DNA of 34,820 nt from Promethearchaeota archaeon (GTDB taxonomy: Archaea > Asgardarchaeota > Lokiarchaeia > Sigyniarchaeales > SOKP01). The stretch's first letter is position 1. Every line of letters begins with the position of its first letter. This document shows, in pieces, positions 1,145 to 12,793 of this stretch. The translations under genes were made by a program, and so were the position numbers. The notes under the pieces are model-generated. The model searched no databases and was not told the DNA's origin. It worked only from the letters and a program-made list of their open reading frames with translations. The stretch lies in NCBI GenBank assembly GCA_020344955.1, contig CP070831.1, positions 155,056 to 189,875 of the forward strand, given 5' to 3'.

Positions 1145-3505
1145 ATGTCGAGCACAAATAAAAACTTAAAAAAAGCAGAAGCTCTTATGAATGAAGGTAA
1201 AGATTTTGAAGCTATCCCTATCTTAAACAAACTCGGGGAGGGGGAACAATTGTCTTCATCTGATCAAATATTATTAAGCTCTCTTTTTATTAGACTAGGT
1301 AAGTGGGTAGAAGCTTATAATACTGCTGAACAAGCATATCAGAAGACTCAACATTCTACGGATTACTTACAATCAATAAATGCTGTTCTAAATATGGCAT
1401 CTGCTAAAGCAATGTGTGTTGATTTGGATAAAGCCTCTGATTTAGTAAAAATAAGTGAAGAATTATATAACAGACTTTCTCAACAATCATCAACAAAACT
1501 TGAACAAATAGAAGCTTATATTGCATATATTAAAGGAGTAATTCTCTTCTTTCAAGGTAATTCAAATGAAAGTATGAAATATATTGCTCAGAGTCTTGAA
1601 TTGCGTGAAAAGATAGGGAATAAATATGAGATTGCTGAATCCCTTAATGGACTTGCAACCATATATAATATATCAAAAAGTGATTTTGATCATTATTTAT
1701 TGTATATAAGACGATGTCATGAAATTGCTGAGGAAATTCATTATCAGAGATTAATTGCTTATTCAAATCATAATCTTGGTGTAGCATACTATATAAAGGG
1801 GGATTTTGAAAAATCTTTATCATATTATGGACTAGCTCTGAAATATTTCGAAAAAACAAATGATTTACTTTTTCATACTGGGACTCTGAGTAATATTGCA
1901 TTGGTTTACCGAGAGAAAGGAGAATTAGACAAATCAATAGAATTAATGGAAAAATATTTAGTAATACAGGAAAGTATTGGGAATAATTGGATGGTTGCTA
2001 TTAATTATGCAAATTTAATACAATTATACATTAATAAGGCTGAAATTAAACCTGCTCAAGAGTATTTAGAAAGATTTAAAAAATTAAAAAATGCAGTGGG
2101 AACTCCACAAATTAATAATCATTATCGTTTTAGTGAAGCTCTCATTTTAAAAACTAGCCTAAGAACTCAAAATCGAGCGAAAGCAGAAAAACTGCTGAGG
2201 TTATTAATTCGTGAAGAGAATGCGGGTGCTGAAACAAAAATAGAAGCATTAATTCATTTATGTGATCTATTACTCGATGAGCTTAAAATAACAAGTGAGA
2301 TGGATATAATAGAAGAAATAAAACCATTAATTAATGAATTATTATATTTAACTGAGAAATCGCGCAATTATAAATTTTTTGCAGAAACATATGTTTTACA
2401 AGCTAAATTGGCTTTAATAATACTAGACTTGAAAGAAGCTCGTTACTTATTCTCCAAAGCGCAAGATATTGCAGAAAAATATGGTTATGAACTATTAGGA
2501 CAGAAAATTTCAAGCGAACATGATGATTTACTCAAAAAATTGGACTTATGGGAGAATTTAAAAGAATCTAATGCCCCAATCGAAGATCGATTGGAATTAG
2601 TTAGTTTAAGTGATCAAACATTGCGTATGATTAGAAAAACTACAGGAAAAACTCCTAGCTTGAAAGTTGAAAAACCTGTTTTGCTTGTTATATTAACTAG
2701 TAAGGGTTCTATCTTATTATTTAATCCATTTTCTTCAGAGATGACGATAAATGAAAATAACATTAGTGAATTTTTATCTTCTTTCACAACATTGAGTGAT
2801 AAAGCTTTTTCTGAAAAATTTGATCGTATAAAATTCGGTGATAATACCATTCTCATTAGATTGATTGACCATTTTACTATATGTTATATGTTTCAAGGCC
2901 AGACTTATAGTGCTCGACAGAAATTAATTCACTTTTCTGATTCTATAAAAAAAAATATGAAAATTAAGGAAATATTAGAAAATGCTGAAAATAAAGGTAT
3001 AATTGTAAAAATAAGTGAAACCCCTTCTCTTGAGGAATTAATAATCGAGGGTTTTATGTCTGATCCAAAAGATTTTCAAGTCCCATTTAAAGCATACGTG
3101 GGAGATGAGCCTTATACATTCGTCAGCTATGCTCATACTAACAAACTTCAAGTTTATCCAATATTAGACACTATTAACAATATGGGAATTAATATCTGGT
3201 ATGATGAAGGAATTCCAGTTAGTGAAAATTGGAAAAGATCGATTGTAGAAAATCTAGAACGATGTAGTGCATTTCTCGTATTTATTTCACCCCAAATAAT
3301 TGATTCTGAATATGTAAGAAAAGAAATTAGTTTTGCACTTAAGAAGAAGAAGCCATTTATAGGTGTTTATTTAAAAGAGATGGAATTACCCAGTGAATTA
3401 GAATTTGAAATCGCTGACATTCAGGCTATAATGAAATATCTCATGCCTGAAGATGAGTTTTATGAAAAAATAAATCAAGTACTTTCTGATACTTTATCTT
3501 CTTAA
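1145..3505 (+). CDS. TPR / longin-roadblock-like / TIR domain protein (paralogue 1)
   Basis: A 786-residue cytoplasmic protein. Residues 1-470 are helical tetratricopeptide-type repeats (for example FEKSLSYYGLALKYFEK and LDKSIELMEKYL units). Residues about 510-610 form an alpha/beta unit (LLVILTSKGSILLF, later ICYMFQGQTYSARQKLIHF) that resembles longin/roadblock-like domains of Asgard proteins. Residues 655-786 are a TIR domain: FVSYAH, then IWYDEGIPVSENW, then YVRKEISFAL. Glu727 in KEI aligns with the catalytic Glu region of NAD-cleaving TIRs such as SARM1. By family this suggests a sensor-scaffold joined to an NAD+-consuming or nucleotide-signal-making effector. An AGGAAGG site sits just before the ATG. 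The protein shares its full architecture with the gene at 4256. The TIR call is firm; the middle-domain call is inferred from pattern. Confidence 0.85.
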   Translation: MSSTNKNLKKAEALMNEGKDFEAIPILNKLGEGEQLSSSDQILLSSLFIRLGKWVEAYNTAEQAYQKTQHSTDYLQSINAVLNMASAKAMCVDLDKASDLVKISEELYNRLSQQSSTKLEQIEAYIAYIKGVILFFQGNSNESMKYIAQSLELREKIGNKYEIAESLNGLATIYNISKSDFDHYLLYIRRCHEIAEEIHYQRLIAYSNHNLGVAYYIKGDFEKSLSYYGLALKYFEKTNDLLFHTGTLSNIALVYREKGELDKSIELMEKYLVIQESIGNNWMVAINYANLIQLYINKAEIKPAQEYLERFKKLKNAVGTPQINNHYRFSEALILKTSLRTQNRAKAEKLLRLLIREENAGAETKIEALIHLCDLLLDELKITSEMDIIEEIKPLINELLYLTEKSRNYKFFAETYVLQAKLALIILDLKEARYLFSKAQDIAEKYGYELLGQKISSEHDDLLKKLDLWENLKESNAPIEDRLELVSLSDQTLRMIRKTTGKTPSLKVEKPVLLVILTSKGSILLFNPFSSEMTINENNISEFLSSFTTLSDKAFSEKFDRIKFGDNTILIRLIDHFTICYMFQGQTYSARQKLIHFSDSIKKNMKIKEILENAENKGIIVKISETPSLEELIIEGFMSDPKDFQVPFKAYVGDEPYTFVSYAHTNKLQVYPILDTINNMGINIWYDEGIPVSENWKRSIVENLERCSAFLVFISPQIIDSEYVRKEISFALKKKKPFIGVYLKEMELPSELEFEIADIQAIMKYLMPEDEFYEKINQVLSDTLSS

Positions 3506-3537
3506 AAAACTGATATTATTAATAAAAAGTTAAAAAT

Positions 3538-3577
3538 GATGAAATGTAGTAATTAAATTAATTCAATTAATTTCATC
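3538..3577 (+). promoter_or_regulatory. Imperfect hairpin upstream of the DUF4231 gene
   Basis: GATGAAAT at 3538-3545 is the exact inverse of ATTTCATC at 3570-3577. Inside, TAATT and AATTA can extend the stem after a four-base bulge. It lies between the first TIR gene and the DUF4231 start at 3601. It could be an operator or a transcript-end structure. The surroundings are very AT-rich, so chance is a real possibility. Confidence 0.35.
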
Positions 3578-3600
3578 AATAAAAATTAAAATGACTTAAT

Positions 3601-4053
3601 ATGGATGAATCCGAATTTGAGAAATATCTAAAGGAGAGATATAAAAATCAAATAAGTTGGTATGAAAAGAGATCTAAAAGTTGTAAAAATTGGTTTAGGT
3701 ATCTTGAGATAGTATTAATCATTTGCTCTGCAATGACCCCGATATTAATAGTTATTGATTACATATCTGAAGCATTTACAACTTTGCGATGGATTTCTAT
3801 ACTTACTTCCGTTCTAACTGTAGTTCTAGCTTCGTTGATCCGAACATTTAAGTTCCAGGAGCATTGGATAAATTACAGGACTACCGTTGAATTACTAAAA
3901 AAAGAACAATATTATTTTAAAGCAAATGCTAATGAATATGGAACAGTTCAAGATAAGAAAGCATTATTCGTTAAACGGGTTGAAAATTTGATCTCCCAAG
4001 CACATACTAAATGGATTGATGAATATAAATTACACTTAGAGGCAGAAGAATAA
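3601..4053 (+). CDS. DUF4231 / SLATT-type two-helix membrane protein
   Basis: A 150-residue protein with the DUF4231 layout: an N-terminal amphipathic stretch (YLKERYKNQISWYEKRSK), two membrane helices at about residues 34-54 and 62-80, then a conserved cytoplasmic part (EHWINYRTTVELLKKEQYYF, residues 87-106) and a C-terminal helix with AHTKWIDEY. DUF4231 belongs to the SLATT group of two-TM proteins. These are predicted to form membrane pores and are often coupled to nucleotide-signalling or NAD-processing partners in prokaryotic conflict systems. Here it lies between two TPR-TIR paralogues on the same strand, 95 bases after the first and about 200 before the second. I infer that it is the membrane effector, with TIR activity providing the trigger. 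No SD motif is visible; the ATG gives the family's normal length. Confidence 0.75.
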   Translation: MDESEFEKYLKERYKNQISWYEKRSKSCKNWFRYLEIVLIICSAMTPILIVIDYISEAFTTLRWISILTSVLTVVLASLIRTFKFQEHWINYRTTVELLKKEQYYFKANANEYGTVQDKKALFVKRVENLISQAHTKWIDEYKLHLEAEE

Positions 4054-4255
4054 AGGAACATTATAAATTACTCGTAAAAATTGAGTAAATCCTCTAAATT
4101 TTAAAATTTCTTTTTGAAATCCTATTTTTCCCCTTTAAATAATGATTTTCCAGTTATACCAAACCAGATATAAATTAGGGATAATCTTTATATTAATAGG
4201 AAACAATTAAAAATAGTATAAATCTATTAAACAATAGAAATCGAGTATTTATCTG

Positions 4256-6640
4256 ATGCCAAACTCAGAATCAATGGGATTAATTCAAATAGAGAAACTA
4301 ATTGATAAAGGAGAGCATGAAGAAGCTTTATTGTTAATTAAAGATTTCGAGGAGAAGGGAGAAGAATCTCTTGAAGATATTGTATCTTTCCATCTACTCA
4401 AGTGCAAACTTTTTTTTCAACAGGGTTTATTTAAAAAAGTTGTGAAGTTTGGCCAGGAAACTTACAAAGAGAGTTTAGGTTTAGGAAAAAGTCTTCTTTC
4501 TATTGATGCCTTGATAAGAATAGCTGCTGCTTTAAGTGAACTTCATGAACATGAGAATGAATTTAATACCATTAAACAGGGAGAAGCTCTTTTGAAAACA
4601 TTAAAACGAGATTTACACAAAAACTACGAGAAAAGCGAAGCTTCAATACATTATGCCAAAGCCCAGTATTATGAAAAAATCCGTAATATAGATTTGGCAC
4701 TAGAGCACTCTGAGCGCAGTTTAGTTTTGCGAGAAAAATTTGGTGCGAAACAGGAAGTTGTTAGTTCTCTTTTACAATTTGGTTGGATAATTGGTGTTCA
4801 TAAAGCCGAATTAGACAGTGGTTTAGAATTTATAAAACAGAGTATTACTATCGCCAGGGAAAACAATATAAAATTCTATCTAGGTAAGGGACTTGACTTT
4901 ATCGGTTGTTTATATGGTTTTAAAGGGGAAATAGATCTTGCTATTTCAAATTTTGAACAAAGTATAAAGATTTTCAAAGAGTTAAACAATAAAAGCCGTA
5001 TGGCTGGTGTTCTTAATAATGTAGGTGAAAATTATAGAAAGAGAGGTGAACTAGATCGTGCATTAGATTGCTTAAAACAAAGCTTAACACTATATGATGA
5101 AGTAGGAGACTTGAAACGTTATGCAGGAATATATGATTTCTTAATTCAAGTTTTAATTGAAAAGGGTGATTTTGAACATGCACATCAAAGACTTAAAAAA
5201 TTAGAGGAACTAAAGAATCTAATAGAAGATAAAGGTATTGATTATAGTTATCTCTTAAACAAAGCTATGCTATTAAAAACAAGTCTTCGAGCCCATAATC
5301 GAGTTAAAGCTGAAGAAATATTAAAATTACTCCTTGAGGATTATGAAATTGATAAATATTCAACGAATAAAGTTTTATTTAACTTATGTGAACTGCTTCT
5401 AATTGAATTACAAATAACCAAAGATTTAGAAGTTTTAGAAGAGTTGGAATCCTATATTGCTCAACTGATTGAAAGTGCTGAAAAATCAAATTCATTTTGG
5501 ATATTAGGAGAAACTTATCTATTGCAAGCGAAATTAGCTTTGATATCTTTGGATTTGAAAAAGGCGAGACAATTATTAACACAAGGTCAACAGATTGCTG
5601 AAAAAAATGGACTCAAATTACTAGCTATGAAAATTTCGAACGAACATGATATCGTAATTAGACAATTAAATATATGGGAAAATTTGAAGAATTCAGATAG
5701 TTCTTTAGAAGAACGTATAGAACTCGCCAGATTAGACGAAGAAATAAATTTAATAGCCAAAAAAAAAATAACCACACAAGATGAATTTGAAATTGAGCAA
5801 TCAATTTTACTTGCTATCGTTTCTAAGAAAGGGAATATATTATTTTCTAATCCTTTCACTGCAGATATGACATTCGATGTTAATCGCATTGCAGAACTTC
5901 TTTCCTCTTTTAATATCTTAAGCGATGAAATTTTTTCAGAAGCTCTCGATCGTGTAAAATTTCTAGATTTTACATTGCTTATGAAAGAAGTAAAAACGTT
6001 AATTATCTGTTATATGTTTAAGGGGCGAACATATGGTGCACTTCAGAAATTATCTCATTTCTGTGAAACACTAAAAAATAATGTTGAAATATTAGAAACT
6101 CTTAATTCTGGAGTTAAAAAGACACAAGTTATGACATTGAACGATATTCCTAAAATTGAGGAGTTAATTTCCGAGAGTTTTCTTTCTGATCCTCAAAAAT
6201 TTCAAGTCCCATTTAAAGCCTATGAAGGAGAAGAACCATACTTATTCGTAAGTTATGCTCATGTAGATAAACTTCATGTCTATCCAATAATAGATTATCT
6301 AAATAAGGCAAACATAAAAATTTGGTATGATGAAGGAATTCCTATAAGTGAAAATTGGAGAAAAATTATCGTAGAAAATATTGAAAAATGTAATGCTTTT
6401 CTTGTTTTTATCACACCACATATATTAGATTCCGATTATGTTCAAAAAGAAATTAATTTTGCGTTAATTCGACATAAAGCATTCTTTGCTGTTTACTTAA
6501 AAGAAACAAAATTACCAAGTGAATTGGAATTTGAAATCAGCAGCATTCAACACATAAAAAAGTATCTTATGCCAGAATCTAAATTCTATGAGAAGTTAAC
6601 AACAAAATTATCTTTCTTATTAATTTCGAAATGTGAATGA
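4256..6640 (+). CDS. TPR / longin-roadblock-like / TIR domain protein (paralogue 2)
   Basis: 794 residues with the same three-part layout as the protein starting at 1145. Helical TPR repeats fill residues 1-475 (LDRALDCLKQSLTLYDE is a clear unit). A longin/roadblock-like unit follows at about 514-615 (ILLAIVSKKGNILFSNPF, ICYMFKGRTYGALQKLSHF), then the linker FLSDPQKFQVPFKAYEG and a TIR domain from about 660 to the end. TIR marks are FVSYAH, IWYDEGIPISENW and YVQKEINFAL with Glu732 at the presumed catalytic position. The TIR half and linker are the best conserved between the paralogues, while the TPR halves differ more, which suits different recognition partners sharing one output. A TATA-like box (TATAAATC near 4217-4224) lies about 35 bases before the ATG, so it may have its own promoter. 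Confidence 0.85.
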   Translation: MPNSESMGLIQIEKLIDKGEHEEALLLIKDFEEKGEESLEDIVSFHLLKCKLFFQQGLFKKVVKFGQETYKESLGLGKSLLSIDALIRIAAALSELHEHENEFNTIKQGEALLKTLKRDLHKNYEKSEASIHYAKAQYYEKIRNIDLALEHSERSLVLREKFGAKQEVVSSLLQFGWIIGVHKAELDSGLEFIKQSITIARENNIKFYLGKGLDFIGCLYGFKGEIDLAISNFEQSIKIFKELNNKSRMAGVLNNVGENYRKRGELDRALDCLKQSLTLYDEVGDLKRYAGIYDFLIQVLIEKGDFEHAHQRLKKLEELKNLIEDKGIDYSYLLNKAMLLKTSLRAHNRVKAEEILKLLLEDYEIDKYSTNKVLFNLCELLLIELQITKDLEVLEELESYIAQLIESAEKSNSFWILGETYLLQAKLALISLDLKKARQLLTQGQQIAEKNGLKLLAMKISNEHDIVIRQLNIWENLKNSDSSLEERIELARLDEEINLIAKKKITTQDEFEIEQSILLAIVSKKGNILFSNPFTADMTFDVNRIAELLSSFNILSDEIFSEALDRVKFLDFTLLMKEVKTLIICYMFKGRTYGALQKLSHFCETLKNNVEILETLNSGVKKTQVMTLNDIPKIEELISESFLSDPQKFQVPFKAYEGEEPYLFVSYAHVDKLHVYPIIDYLNKANIKIWYDEGIPISENWRKIIVENIEKCNAFLVFITPHILDSDYVQKEINFALIRHKAFFAVYLKETKLPSELEFEISSIQHIKKYLMPESKFYEKLTTKLSFLLISKCE

Positions 6641-9169: not shown

Positions 9170-11131
9170 ATGGAAAAAAAAGATATTTTATTCCTTAGAA
9201 AAATTGGGATTCTTATATTATGTCTTACATTTTCACTTACATTTCTATTTTTAAACAAAACAGCAAGCTATTCAAGATACGAACGTGTCCAATTCCAATC
9301 TGCTGGAGCGACTCTTTATGCAAATCTATATTATCCGTCAAAAACACTTGATTTTCAGAATAATAGGCCATTAATTATTTATTGTCATGGTATTGGAAGC
9401 CAGAGAGATTTTGATCTTAGAATTCCTATTGAACTTACTAAACGTGGTTTTTATTTAGCAGCATTAGATTATCAAGGACATGGAGAAAGTGGTGGTAGCA
9501 TTAATAATATGGTCCCAATTCTAAATATCCCAGCAATAGCCCAAGACTGTTCAATGTTGTTAGATAAATTGGAGACTATGCCATTTTATTCGAATGTAAA
9601 TACCTCTCAGATTGGTTTAATTGGTCATTCACTTGGAGGTATGGTTGTTTTAATGAATCAAGCTTTAGATGATCGATTTACAGCAACAGTTGCTTGGGCT
9701 CCCTTAGTTGATTTCGATCCAGCACTCTTAGGGATAACTAATCCTGATTTTATTGACTATATTCCTGCTAATATATTAGATATGAATAATTCAGATAATC
9801 TTTTGATAATCATGCATGTCAACGATGAAGTATTAGATTTTACTGAAAATGCTCTACAAGCTCAATCATTAACAAATTGTACTGTTATTCCAGTAACAGG
9901 TGCTTTATTAGGCGGTGGTCACCAATTGTTTTCAGATGGAGTAATTATTGAATCTATAAATTGGTTTGAAGCTCATTTTTTTAACTCTGAGACAATTAAT
10001 GGCCCGATTTTTATATCTTTTATGGTGAATTATATCTTTCTATTTTTATCTCTAGGGATATTAATTGCGATAGTATTAACTTTAACATCATATTCCTCAA
10101 AATATTTTTCTTTAGAGGAAAAAGAAGAAAAGCCAACTAAATTAGAAAAGAAGAGATCATTTAAAAAAGTGAAACAAGGTATAAAACTAATTAAGATTGG
10201 GATTTATTCTGGAGCATTTGTGATTAATTGGGTCTTATTTGAATATTTCTTTGGTTTACAAGGTATTTTCATAGCTTCACTGTTAATTACCCTTATCTAT
10301 TTAGCTGCGATTTTAGGTAGACGCTATAGAAACCTTAAGAAGAGAGAAGAAATATCTACGATTAAAGAGTTTATAATATCCAAACTCCAAATAAAACATT
10401 TCTTTTATTCCATGTTTTTTACAATTTATTTTATAGCTATTTTAATACTATTTTCAATTTCTTATCCATCAAATGCATTACCGCCATCACCTTTCTTAGA
10501 TGTAGCGTTTATCGTTATAATCATATTTTTGATAGCGAGTATTGCCCTATCATGTTTCTTTGGATATATATTATTCTACATTCATAAGAAACAACATATT
10601 CAGTTGGAATTTAAATTGAATTTAAGAAATATTAAGATTCAAAATAAACGTTTCGTGAGAGTATTTCTTTATTCTCTTGCTTGTTCTTGTTATTTTATCA
10701 TAATATATCTAGTATTTTCAATTTCTTATCCGTTTGCATTTATGTGGCCTTCAAATTATATTAATCTTGTATTAACTGTAATTGCTTTCCCCATCCTATT
10801 ATCAATGGAGCTTCTTTACAGGAAACTAATTTACCCTAACTTATCATTTCTCAATGAACGAGCTAAACGAAGAGTTATTATTGTAATTGCAGTGATTATT
10901 CAAATTAGTCTTATGATATTAACTCAGACTTGGTCTTTTTTCCCATCAGTTTTATTTACTTATTTTATGTTTTTGTTTGTAATTATTCAAAATACCCTTA
11001 TTTATGAGCATACCCATAATTTTGCCGCAGTTGTGTTAAGTTCTTTTAATATTATACAACTTTTTTTCGCTGCGGTTATATCTAATGCTTTGGGGATTGG
11101 ATCTGCCTTACAATCTTTTGTTAGCCTATAA
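9170..11131 (+). CDS. Alpha/beta hydrolase fused to a multi-pass membrane domain
   Basis: 653 residues. Residues 10-28 form a signal anchor. Residues about 40-275 are an alpha/beta hydrolase: oxyanion YCHGIGS, nucleophile GHSLGG with Ser154, likely Asp219 in HVNDEVLDF, and His251 in GGGHQLF, so the triad is intact. After residue 280 come about ten hydrophobic helices. Within them a two-helix unit is repeated, each copy carrying FSISYP (in ILFSISYPSNALPP and LVFSISYPFAFMWP). The hydrolase probably lies outside the membrane, next to the anchor, and may act on a lipid or peptide ester. I know of no named family with this exact fusion, and the substrate cannot be told from sequence. It is followed by the EamA transporter gene on the same strand. 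Confidence 0.8.
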   Translation: MEKKDILFLRKIGILILCLTFSLTFLFLNKTASYSRYERVQFQSAGATLYANLYYPSKTLDFQNNRPLIIYCHGIGSQRDFDLRIPIELTKRGFYLAALDYQGHGESGGSINNMVPILNIPAIAQDCSMLLDKLETMPFYSNVNTSQIGLIGHSLGGMVVLMNQALDDRFTATVAWAPLVDFDPALLGITNPDFIDYIPANILDMNNSDNLLIIMHVNDEVLDFTENALQAQSLTNCTVIPVTGALLGGGHQLFSDGVIIESINWFEAHFFNSETINGPIFISFMVNYIFLFLSLGILIAIVLTLTSYSSKYFSLEEKEEKPTKLEKKRSFKKVKQGIKLIKIGIYSGAFVINWVLFEYFFGLQGIFIASLLITLIYLAAILGRRYRNLKKREEISTIKEFIISKLQIKHFFYSMFFTIYFIAILILFSISYPSNALPPSPFLDVAFIVIIIFLIASIALSCFFGYILFYIHKKQHIQLEFKLNLRNIKIQNKRFVRVFLYSLACSCYFIIIYLVFSISYPFAFMWPSNYINLVLTVIAFPILLSMELLYRKLIYPNLSFLNERAKRRVIIVIAVIIQISLMILTQTWSFFPSVLFTYFMFLFVIIQNTLIYEHTHNFAAVVLSSFNIIQLFFAAVISNALGIGSALQSFVSL

Positions 11132-11205: not shown

Positions 11206-12525
11206 ATGCAAAATAAACTCATCGTTAATATAATTGCAGCGAATTTACTGTGGAGTTTTATTCCAGTAATCGTAGAAGATTTATTTTTAGAAGTTTCAAT
11301 TATAATGGTGATTTTTTTGAGATTTCTTATTTCTGGATTAGTTTTATTAACTCTAGCTCTAATATTTGTGGTGATTAACAATAGAAAATCTATTAAAGCA
11401 CCAATTTCAATTAGATTTCTATTTAAAAACCTATTACATAAAAATAGGCGATTTTTTGATATAAGGAATATCTCATATTATTTTTATTTAGGCTTTTTTG
11501 GTGTAATCCTTAATATTATTTTTTTCTTCTTAACATTAAAAACTACGTCAATTACTTTTACAATGATAGGATTTCTTTTAAGCGTGATTTTAATAGCATT
11601 TTATGAAAAAGGTGTTAATTTTGAAAAATTCGATATTTTCAAAGTGTTATATATAATAATACTATTTTTTTCCATAATTATCCTGATCCTTGTAGGGAGT
11701 ACAGGAGCAGCACTTAAAGGTAGACCCCTGATGTTAAATGGTATAATATATTTACTTGTTTTTAGTATCGCAATTTCCTTTCTGTACATAATTATAAATA
11801 GAGATGCATATTCAACAGAAGAAATCAAAATAGTAAACCAAAATAAGAATTACAAAATACCTCGATTTCTAATCAAAATGTCAATTTCCTTTTTAATGGG
11901 TGTACTTTGTATGATTCCAGTAGTAATAATCATATATTTATTACCAATAGAGACTGATTTAACCAATGAAATAACTACATTTTTTGCCCAGTTTAGAAAT
12001 ATCTTTTTGATTTTAGGGAGATGGGAGTTAATTTTTTTAATAATTTTTTCAACAATTGTTCCATATCTATTAATTTTTACTGCAAATGCTAATTGGAGAT
12101 CCAGAGATTTAACTTATAGCCAATGGAGTAGTATTTTAAATCTTATAGATCCAATGGGGTCTATTATTTTTTCAGTGATTATGGTCAATGAATATTTTCC
12201 ACTTGAATTATTGATTATTATTATTTTTCTTTTAGTTTTTGCATTTGTATTTAGATATTCACATGAAGTAAAGAATTTAGTTCAAGCATTCTTGTTATTG
12301 AGATTGAAAAAAGGTTCAATTGACAAAATTGCATTGCGTATTTTTAAATATTATGGGATAACATCTGTTTATACTTTGGTTGGAACTCATGACTTGTTTT
12401 TAAACGTAAAATTAAGTTCAATAAAAGATTTTTATAATCTAATAAATTTAAGATTAAAACCTTTAAAAGAAATTGAAGATATTGAAATTTTATTTATTAA
12501 CAAAATTGAAAAAATACCAATCTAG
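11206..12525 (+). CDS. EamA/DMT-type transporter with a C-terminal RAM (Lrp/AsnC ligand-binding) domain
   Basis: 439 residues. Residues 1-350 contain about ten hydrophobic helices. The first pair (IIAANLLWSFIPVIVEDLF, then MVIFLRFLISGLVLL) is typical of EamA drug/metabolite transporters, which move amino acids and other small metabolites. Residues about 361-434 are soluble and read like a RAM domain: a strand with FLLLRLKKGS, a helix, then ITSVYTLVGTHDLFLNVKLSS and a closing EIEDIEILFINKIEK. The pattern of Gly-x-x-Asp followed by a hydrophobic strand is the RAM hallmark. RAM domains bind amino acids in Lrp regulators, so this transporter may be gated by its substrate. A separate RAM protein gene starts 22 bases later. 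The transporter call is firm; the RAM fusion is inferred by pattern. Confidence 0.75.
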   Translation: MQNKLIVNIIAANLLWSFIPVIVEDLFLEVSIIMVIFLRFLISGLVLLTLALIFVVINNRKSIKAPISIRFLFKNLLHKNRRFFDIRNISYYFYLGFFGVILNIIFFFLTLKTTSITFTMIGFLLSVILIAFYEKGVNFEKFDIFKVLYIIILFFSIIILILVGSTGAALKGRPLMLNGIIYLLVFSIAISFLYIIINRDAYSTEEIKIVNQNKNYKIPRFLIKMSISFLMGVLCMIPVVIIIYLLPIETDLTNEITTFFAQFRNIFLILGRWELIFLIIFSTIVPYLLIFTANANWRSRDLTYSQWSSILNLIDPMGSIIFSVIMVNEYFPLELLIIIIFLLVFAFVFRYSHEVKNLVQAFLLLRLKKGSIDKIALRIFKYYGITSVYTLVGTHDLFLNVKLSSIKDFYNLINLRLKPLKEIEDIEILFINKIEKIPI

Positions 12526-12547
12526 TGCCTCTGAGAGGATATAATGT

Positions 12548-12793
12548 ATGGCAATTAAAGCTATTATTTTATGTAAATTAGGGATTAGTGTAATAAAACC
12601 TGTAATTGAAGAGTTGAAAAAAATACCTCAAATAACTAAAGTTATGTCATTAACAGGGGATTATGATGCTTTAGCAGAAATTGTAGTAGAAACACCTGAA
12701 GAATTGTATGAAATATTCGCAAATAAAATAGACATGATTGAGGGAATAACAGCTTCTAATACTCATATGGTAATGAAAGAATTTACTAAATAA
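12548..12793 (+). CDS. Stand-alone Lrp/AsnC ligand-binding (RAM) domain protein
   Basis: 81 residues comprising only the RAM fold: an opening strand AIILCKLG, helix VIKPVIEELKKIPQI, strand VMSLTGDYDALAEIVVET, helix ELYEIFANKI and a closing strand. No helix-turn-helix is present, so it should not bind DNA alone. Single-domain RAM proteins in archaea form ring oligomers that bind amino acids and can modulate full-length Lrp regulators. It has a GAGAGG site upstream and is probably co-transcribed with the transporter 22 bases upstream, whose tail looks like the same fold. Its stop codon directly abuts the convergent kamE stop at 12794, so it borders the lysine-fermentation cluster and could sense lysine or a product. 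Confidence 0.85.
   Translation: MAIKAIILCKLGISVIKPVIEELKKIPQITKVMSLTGDYDALAEIVVETPEELYEIFANKIDMIEGITASNTHMVMKEFTK

What the first reader, a model, noticed from the sequence alone, without database searches (positions are those of the whole stretch)
11206..12793. Transporter with a built-in RAM amino-acid sensor, followed by a free RAM protein
The last 75 residues of the EamA-type transporter have the RAM strand-helix order and Gly-x-x-Asp turn (TLVGTHDLFLNV), matching the next gene's TLTGDYDALAEI-like core. A transporter tail and a soluble partner sharing a fold known to oligomerise suggests that the free RAM protein could dock on the transporter and gate it by amino-acid level.
Basis: partly seen in the sequence, partly recalled or inferred. 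Interest (0 to 1): 0.7.

Follow-up and report, generated by a model that had tools for sequence, protein, structure and literature searches.

The report
Asgard transporter-plus-sensor gene pair
In a Lokiarchaeon and in 133 of the other 226 Asgard archaeal genomes searched, an amino-acid-type membrane transporter ends in the sensing fold of a well-known family of gene regulators and, in nearly every locus examined, sits next to a gene for a free copy of that fold, which suggests that the free protein reads a metabolite level and switches the transporter directly.

Summary
Confirmed and much broader than the finding. ORF 11206-12525 is a 439-aa EamA/DMT transporter whose last ~75 residues are a real RAM (Lrp/AsnC ligand-binding) domain: Pfam 27.9 bits (cut-off 25), AlphaFold β-α-β-β-α-β, DM1 crystal structure matched at TM 0.89. 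The next gene (12548-12793) is a stand-alone RAM protein. All 42 full-length orthologues keep the tail; 38 have a free RAM gene directly beside them. A second, sequence-distinct DMT-RAM family in other Asgard lineages (85 genomes) shows the same pairing in 55/56 loci, although the free gene lies upstream in some groups and downstream in others. Together 134/227 genomes carry one or the other, none both. Six ordinary EamA genes in the same genome have neither tail nor RAM neighbour.

The parts are asymmetric. Free RAMs keep the effector-contacting Thr-x-Thr pair (86/100); tails never do (0/98). So the tail is more likely a docking platform and the free RAM the sensor, rather than a "built-in sensor". 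Docking has precedent but is not shown: the two-domain AlphaFold model was inconclusive and there was no tail-specific co-evolution. Lysine/β-lysine specificity is unsupported: neighbours vary (lysine fermentation, trp genes, aspartate racemase).

The parts
11206..12525 (+). EamA/DMT-type transporter of 439 aa with C-terminal RAM domain (family A)
   Evidence: Pfam EamA 32.2 bits and AsnC_trans_reg 27.9 bits; orthologues in 49 of 227 Asgard genomes
11206..12252 (+). Membrane part, about 10 predicted TM helices (residues 1-349), N-in/C-in by the positive-inside rule, so the tail should face the cytoplasm
   Evidence: Averaged hydropathy profile over 42 orthologues and charge of loops 56-88 and 198-222; topology is inferred
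12253..12267 (+). Conserved juxtamembrane motif RYxHE (residues 350-354; Glu354 invariant in 42 of 42), possible coupling element between TM10 and the RAM tail
   Evidence: Alignment of 42 orthologues
12280..12501 (+). RAM tail (residues 359-432), beta-alpha-beta-beta-alpha-beta
   Evidence: Pfam, AlphaFold, Foldseek to DM1 2e1a, STS042 2zbc, TTHA0845 2djw
12382..12393 (+). G-x-x-D turn of the tail (Gly393, Asp396)
   Evidence: Gly 42/42, Asp 39/42
12533..12538 (+). Shine-Dalgarno-like GAGAGG in the 22-nt gap before the free RAM gene (bicistronic arrangement)
   Evidence: Sequence read directly; assignment inferred
12548..12793 (+). Stand-alone RAM protein, 81 aa, no DNA-binding domain
   Evidence: Pfam AsnC_trans_reg 56.9 bits; PDB relatives 2cyy, 2djw; adjacent to the transporter in 38 of 42 family A loci
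12656..12667 (+). G-D-Y-D motif of the free RAM (residues 37-40)
   Evidence: Gly 41/42, Asp 39/42 in family A free RAMs
12755..12766 (+). S-N-T-H motif of the free RAM (residues 70-73), equivalent to Thr132-Ser133-Thr134-Gln135 of ST1022
   Evidence: Alignment to 2efn/2efo and conservation

Best explanation
The two genes form a two-part, protein-level switch for a metabolite (probably amino-acid) transporter. The EamA/DMT protein moves its substrate across the membrane and carries a cytoplasmic RAM domain that has kept its fold but lost the full effector pocket. The adjacent gene makes a canonical stand-alone RAM protein that binds a cytosolic amino acid or related metabolite at RAM-RAM interfaces. 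Ligand binding changes how the free RAM assembles, alone or with the tail (mixed dimer or octamer, as in the FL11-DM1 hetero-octamer), and through the conserved RYxHE linker after TM10 this opens or closes the transporter. Shown here: both domains, the operon-like pairing, its conservation in two transporter families, and the loss of the effector pair in tails but not in free partners. Inferred: direct binding, ligand gating, cytoplasmic orientation, that the substrate or ligand is an amino acid, and the direction of transport.
For: RAM tail by profile, predicted fold and structural match. Tail kept in 42 of 42 full-length orthologues; Pfam RAM hit in 24 of 26 and EamA in 19 of 26 diverse members. 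Adjacent same-strand free RAM in 38 of 42 family A loci; three of the other four, all one family (f4), have a free RAM 2-5 kb downstream. In the Lokiarchaeal family, 35 of 65 genomes have both genes, 28 neither, and 2 one only (inputs). Family B: 85 of 227 genomes; 56 of 56 sampled have a RAM tail and 55 of 56 an adjacent free RAM, upstream in 35 and downstream in 23, both in 3. The membrane cores of A and B are not demonstrably related (hhalign 7.9%), so the pairing recurs with distinct or extremely divergent carriers. Effector Thr pair in 37/42 and 49/58 free RAMs but 0/42 and 0/56 tails, mapped to ST1022 Thr132/Thr134. Negative control: other EamA genes of the genome lack tails and RAM neighbours. 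Precedents for RAM hetero-oligomers: PMC2995911, PMC4145669.
Against: No interface was shown: the read-through model of tail plus free RAM had pTM 0.52, and its whole-chain matches were poor. Tail-free co-evolution beyond the shared history is weak (partial correlation 0.15-0.24) and smaller than TM-free (0.44-0.49). One genome (G104, locus L118) keeps the free RAM without a detectable transporter, so the free protein may have another role. The membrane region was modelled poorly. Substrate, ligand and direction are unknown.
Confidence: 0.52

Rival explanations
1. The tail only dimerises the transporter with itself; the free RAM instead controls transcription of the operon and other genes by forming mixed oligomers with full-length Lrp/AsnC regulators.
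For: Archaeal stand-alone RAM DM1 assembles with the regulator FL11 in vitro (PMC2995911). The genome has many HTH-RAM regulators. L118 keeps a free RAM without the transporter.
Against: It does not explain why a free RAM is paired with a RAM-tailed carrier in two unrelated-looking transporter families while ordinary EamA genes have none, nor the retention of the tail in every orthologue.
Confidence: 0.2
2. The tail is itself the sensor, and the free RAM adds a second or modulating input.
For: G-x-x-D kept in tails; second Thr/Ser kept in 53 of 56 family B tails.
Against: All 98 tails lack the complete Thr/Ser pair and all 42 family A tails lack the second one, while free partners keep it.
Confidence: 0.1
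3. The RAM parts are assembly or stability modules: the free RAM is an obligate small subunit that caps the tail, without ligand sensing.
For: Obligate pairing and tail degeneration would fit; RAM-fold heterodimers with no sensing role exist (AhbA/AhbB, PMC4145669).
Against: Effector-contact residues are conserved in the free RAMs (86 of 100 with both), which a pure cap would not need.
Confidence: 0.12
4. The pair is a dedicated lysine, beta-lysine or ornithine transporter of the neighbouring fermentation clusters, gated by those compounds.
For: In the window it lies between ornithine aminotransferase/carbamate kinase and the kam lysine-fermentation cluster; the same setting occurs in a subset of Lokiarchaeal relatives.
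Against: The kam genes are convergent, not co-directional, and absent from the neighbourhood of many orthologues; divergent copies sit beside trp genes (L113) or aspartate racemase (L046, L062).
Confidence: 0.15
5. The adjacency or the fusion is an annotation or assembly accident.
For: None found.
Against: Recurs in dozens of independently assembled genomes in two families.
Confidence: 0.01

Closest known systems
Stand-alone RAM proteins of archaea (DM1, STS042, TvDM) and Lrp/AsnC ligand-binding domains
   Same: Same fold and Pfam family; the free RAM keeps TGxYD and the Thr-x-Thr pair
   Different: No DNA-binding domain; here a RAM is fused to a membrane carrier and the free RAM is genetically tied to that carrier. 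The review states that the role of stand-alone RAM proteins is unclear (PMC2995911)
EamA / 10-TM Drug/Metabolite Exporter proteins (DMT superfamily, TC 2.A.7.3)
   Same: Membrane half matches EamA; DMT is a large superfamily in Asgard archaea (PMC7997004)
   Different: Ordinary members, including six in this genome, are 309-337 aa and lack a C-terminal regulatory domain; PMC7997004 contains no mention of AsnC or RAM in this connection
MetNI methionine importer with C-terminal C2 regulatory domain (trans-inhibition)
   Same: Transporter with a C-terminal cytoplasmic domain that controls activity according to an amino acid (PMC10710835)
   Different: ABC importer, domain on the ATPase subunit, not a RAM domain, no separate partner protein
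AmtB-GlnK and SbtA-SbtB
   Same: Transporter gene linked to a small soluble ligand-binding protein that docks and gates it (PMC10710835)
   Different: PII proteins bind the channel directly; here transporter and partner share one fold, which suggests docking by fold pairing
Sirohaem decarboxylase AhbA/AhbB
   Same: Two different Lrp/AsnC-fold chains form a heterodimer (PMC4145669)
   Different: Soluble enzyme, not a transporter

Membership tests
RAM / AsnC_trans_reg (PF01037), tail | Profile score above curated cut-off and beta-alpha-beta-beta-alpha-beta fold | tested here: met
   27.9 bits against 25; fold and DM1 match TMt 0.89
RAM / AsnC_trans_reg (PF01037), tail | Effector-contact Thr pair (ST1022 Thr132/Thr134 equivalents) | tested here: not met
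   Complete pair in 0 of 42 family A and 0 of 56 family B tails
Stand-alone RAM protein, 81-aa product | Short protein consisting of a RAM domain only, no HTH, effector residues kept | tested here: met
   81 aa, 56.9 bits; S-N-T-H and GDYD present
Stand-alone RAM protein, 81-aa product | Binds an amino acid and changes oligomeric state | not testable with these tools
   Needs binding assays
EamA / DMT transporter | EamA repeat and about 10 TM helices | tested here: met
   First EamA repeat 32.2 bits; about 10 hydrophobic segments. The second repeat is not matched by Pfam
EamA / DMT transporter | Transports a small metabolite | not testable with these tools
   No assay; no solved structure matched the membrane profile
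Lrp/AsnC transcription factor | N-terminal helix-turn-helix | tested here: not met
   Neither protein has one
Two-part transporter-regulator pair (works like AmtB-GlnK) | Conserved genetic linkage of transporter and soluble regulator | tested here: met
   38 of 42 and 55 of 56 loci
Two-part transporter-regulator pair (works like AmtB-GlnK) | Physical docking of the regulator on the transporter | tested here: inconclusive
   Two-domain model pTM 0.52; weak co-evolution

The most novel reading that the evidence does not exclude
Asgard archaea have a general protein-level switch in which a stand-alone RAM protein senses a cytosolic amino acid and docks on a degenerate RAM tail of a DMT carrier. 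It would have arisen or been transferred at least twice, onto carriers of different sequence families, and would be a working role for stand-alone RAM proteins outside transcription.
Probability: 0.45. Interest if true: 0.78.

Novelty: new variant of a known kind. Interest (0 to 1): 0.64.

Why it matters
The role of stand-alone RAM proteins, common in archaea, is described as unclear (PMC2995911). Here one is tied, gene by gene, to a transporter that carries the same fold, in 134 of 227 Asgard genomes counting both families. If the docking model holds, RAM domains would be shown to control transport directly and not only transcription, a fast feedback on amino-acid flux in the archaea closest to eukaryotes. 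The parts are small and soluble enough (an 81-aa protein and a ~75-aa tail) for the idea to be tested by simple binding experiments.

Tried and rejected
Lysine-specific reading: rejected as the default because neighbours vary and kam genes are convergent. Tail as complete sensor: made unlikely by loss of the Thr pair. Mirrortree test for tail-specific co-evolution: weak, not used as support. AlphaFold of tail plus free RAM as one chain, using the in-frame gap of relative L040 with its TAA read as Gln: both domains fold, mutual placement uncertain. AlphaFold of the full transporter: membrane part below useful confidence with 7 sequences. PDB search with the membrane profile: no match. Profile comparison of the two transporter families: membrane parts 7.9% probability, so common origin of the cores is undecided. 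Literature: no paper in the library holds both AsnC_trans_reg and EamA.

Full report
OBSERVATION. The window (position 155056-189875 of a 3.34-Mb single-contig genome; nearest named relatives are Lokiarchaeota MAGs) encodes on the + strand a 439-aa protein (11206-12525) and, 22 nt later, an 81-aa protein (12548-12793). Pfam gives EamA at residues 6-161 (32.2 bits, cut-off 28.2) and AsnC_trans_reg, the RAM domain, at 365-431 (27.9 bits, cut-off 25); the 81-aa protein is a RAM domain at 56.9 bits. Tail and free RAM share about 22% identity. AlphaFold with seven sequences models the membrane part poorly (mean pLDDT 50.5) but the tail at 68-81 in most blocks, with strands and helices in the RAM order. 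Foldseek's best matches are Lrp/AsnC or stand-alone RAM structures, for example DM1 (2e1a) TMt 0.89, rmsd 1.4 Å over about 73 columns.

CONSERVATION, FAMILY A. Orthologues occur in 49 of 227 Asgard genomes, almost all Lokiarchaeal families. All 42 full-length copies keep the tail; Gly393 and Glu354 are invariant. Of 26 diverse members, 24 match the Pfam RAM model and 19 match EamA. A free RAM gene lies beside the transporter on the same strand in 38 of 42 loci, usually with a gap between -8 and +60 nt. In three of the remaining four, all from one family (f4), a free RAM lies 2-5 kb downstream; the fourth contig ends about 2 kb downstream. In the Lokiarchaeal family of 65 genomes, 35 have both genes, 28 neither, one has the transporter only (a fragment at a contig end) and one the free RAM only. 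The last case (G104, locus L118) keeps the free RAM next to a mutase-like gene and the lysine-fermentation gene kdd, with no transporter detected.

FAMILY B. A profile search turned up RAM tails on proteins of about 420 aa whose membrane part did not match family A. These form a second DMT-RAM family in 85 of 227 Asgard genomes, none of which carries family A, so 134 of 227 have one or the other. Of 20 diverse members, 20 match Pfam RAM and 13 EamA. In 56 loci examined, 56 have the RAM tail and 55 have an adjacent same-strand free RAM: upstream in 35, downstream in 23, both sides in 3. The gene order changes between lineages while the pairing persists. Comparing the membrane parts alone, A against B gives 7.9% probability; the high score of the full-length comparison comes largely from the RAM tail. 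Either the fusion arose twice or the carriers have diverged beyond recognition.

CONTROLS. The same genome has six other EamA proteins, 309-337 aa without tails. No RAM coding sequence lies within about 1.5 kb of any of them.

ASYMMETRY OF THE TWO RAM COPIES. An alignment through a Lokiarchaeal Lrp protein to ST1022 structures places the free RAM's S-N-T-H motif on Thr132-Ser133-Thr134-Gln135 of ST1022. Depositors made Thr132Ala and Thr134Ala mutants of ST1022, the latter solved with glutamine (titles); that these residues contact the effector is inferred from this. Both Thr/Ser are present in 37 of 42 family A and 49 of 58 family B free RAMs, but in 0 of 42 and 0 of 56 tails; family B tails keep the second (53 of 56), family A tails neither. 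So the tails retain the fold and the G-x-x-D turn but not the full effector site, whereas the free partners retain both.

MECHANISM. The best-supported reading is a docking pair: a canonical soluble RAM sensor and a degenerate RAM platform on the carrier. A review states that RAM dimers pack through β strands, that effectors bind at interfaces between dimers and shift oligomeric state, that the stand-alone RAM DM1 and the regulator FL11 form a hetero-octamer in vitro, and that the significance of stand-alone RAM proteins is unclear (PMC2995911). AhbA/AhbB shows that two different Lrp-fold chains can form a heterodimer (PMC4145669). Hydropathy and positive loops suggest 10 helices with both ends inside, which would place the tail in the cytoplasm. 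These steps are inferred; no binding, gating or transport was measured. Computation did not prove docking: the read-through model of tail plus free RAM gave two good domains but pTM 0.52, and co-evolution between tail and free RAM, after removing the shared history, is weak.

SUBSTRATE. In the window the pair is flanked by ornithine aminotransferase and carbamate kinase and by the convergent kam lysine-fermentation cluster, and this setting recurs in some relatives. Other orthologues lie in unrelated settings; divergent copies sit beside trp biosynthesis genes (L113; genes named by eye) or aspartate racemase (L046, L062). Amino-acid-related metabolism is a plausible theme; lysine in particular is not established.

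COMPARISON. The pair works like AmtB-GlnK or SbtA-SbtB (soluble sensor docks on a carrier) and like MetNI (C-terminal domain senses an amino acid) as summarised in PMC10710835, but uses the RAM fold on both sides. A survey of Asgard transporters reports DMT proteins as a large superfamily with uncharacterised families and contains no mention of AsnC or RAM in this connection (PMC7997004). No paper in the library holds both Pfam names. Whether the architecture exists outside Asgard archaea was not testable here.

Noticed in passing
window 1145-6640: Two similar TPR-TIR proteins (786 and 794 aa, TIR_2 matches) flank a 150-aa DUF4231/SLATT_1 membrane protein: a candidate NAD-linked or defence-like cassette in a Lokiarchaeon.
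   Followed up: partly
L092 2550-5150 (genome C1:138549-141149, minus strand): A single frame of 866 aa begins with a complete Lrp-type HTH plus RAM region, then a run of withheld bases, then a large repeat protein ending in a membrane anchor; the masked stretch may hide a stop.
   Followed up: no
L113 3457-9877: A divergent family A transporter with an upstream free RAM lies next to what look like trp biosynthesis genes (trpG, trpE, trpA, trpB, trpF by eye) in G084; withheld bases interrupt the tail.
   Followed up: partly
L118 1347-1592: Orphan free RAM (56% identical to the window's) between a mutase-like gene and kdd, with the transporter missing although neighbouring gene order resembles that of L085.
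   Followed up: partly
L047, L048, L052, L058; L160, L161, L169: Some loci carry two free RAM genes beside one transporter, suggesting two inputs or a mixed regulator.
   Followed up: no
window 9170-11131: 653-aa protein with an alpha/beta hydrolase domain followed by several membrane helices, just upstream of the pair and also found upstream in L041/L066.
   Followed up: no
genome C1:2661679-2661873 (L094 6653-6886): A second stand-alone RAM protein of 77 aa with no transporter beside it, near a BKACE-like and a hydroxyacyl-CoA dehydrogenase-like gene (by eye).
   Followed up: no
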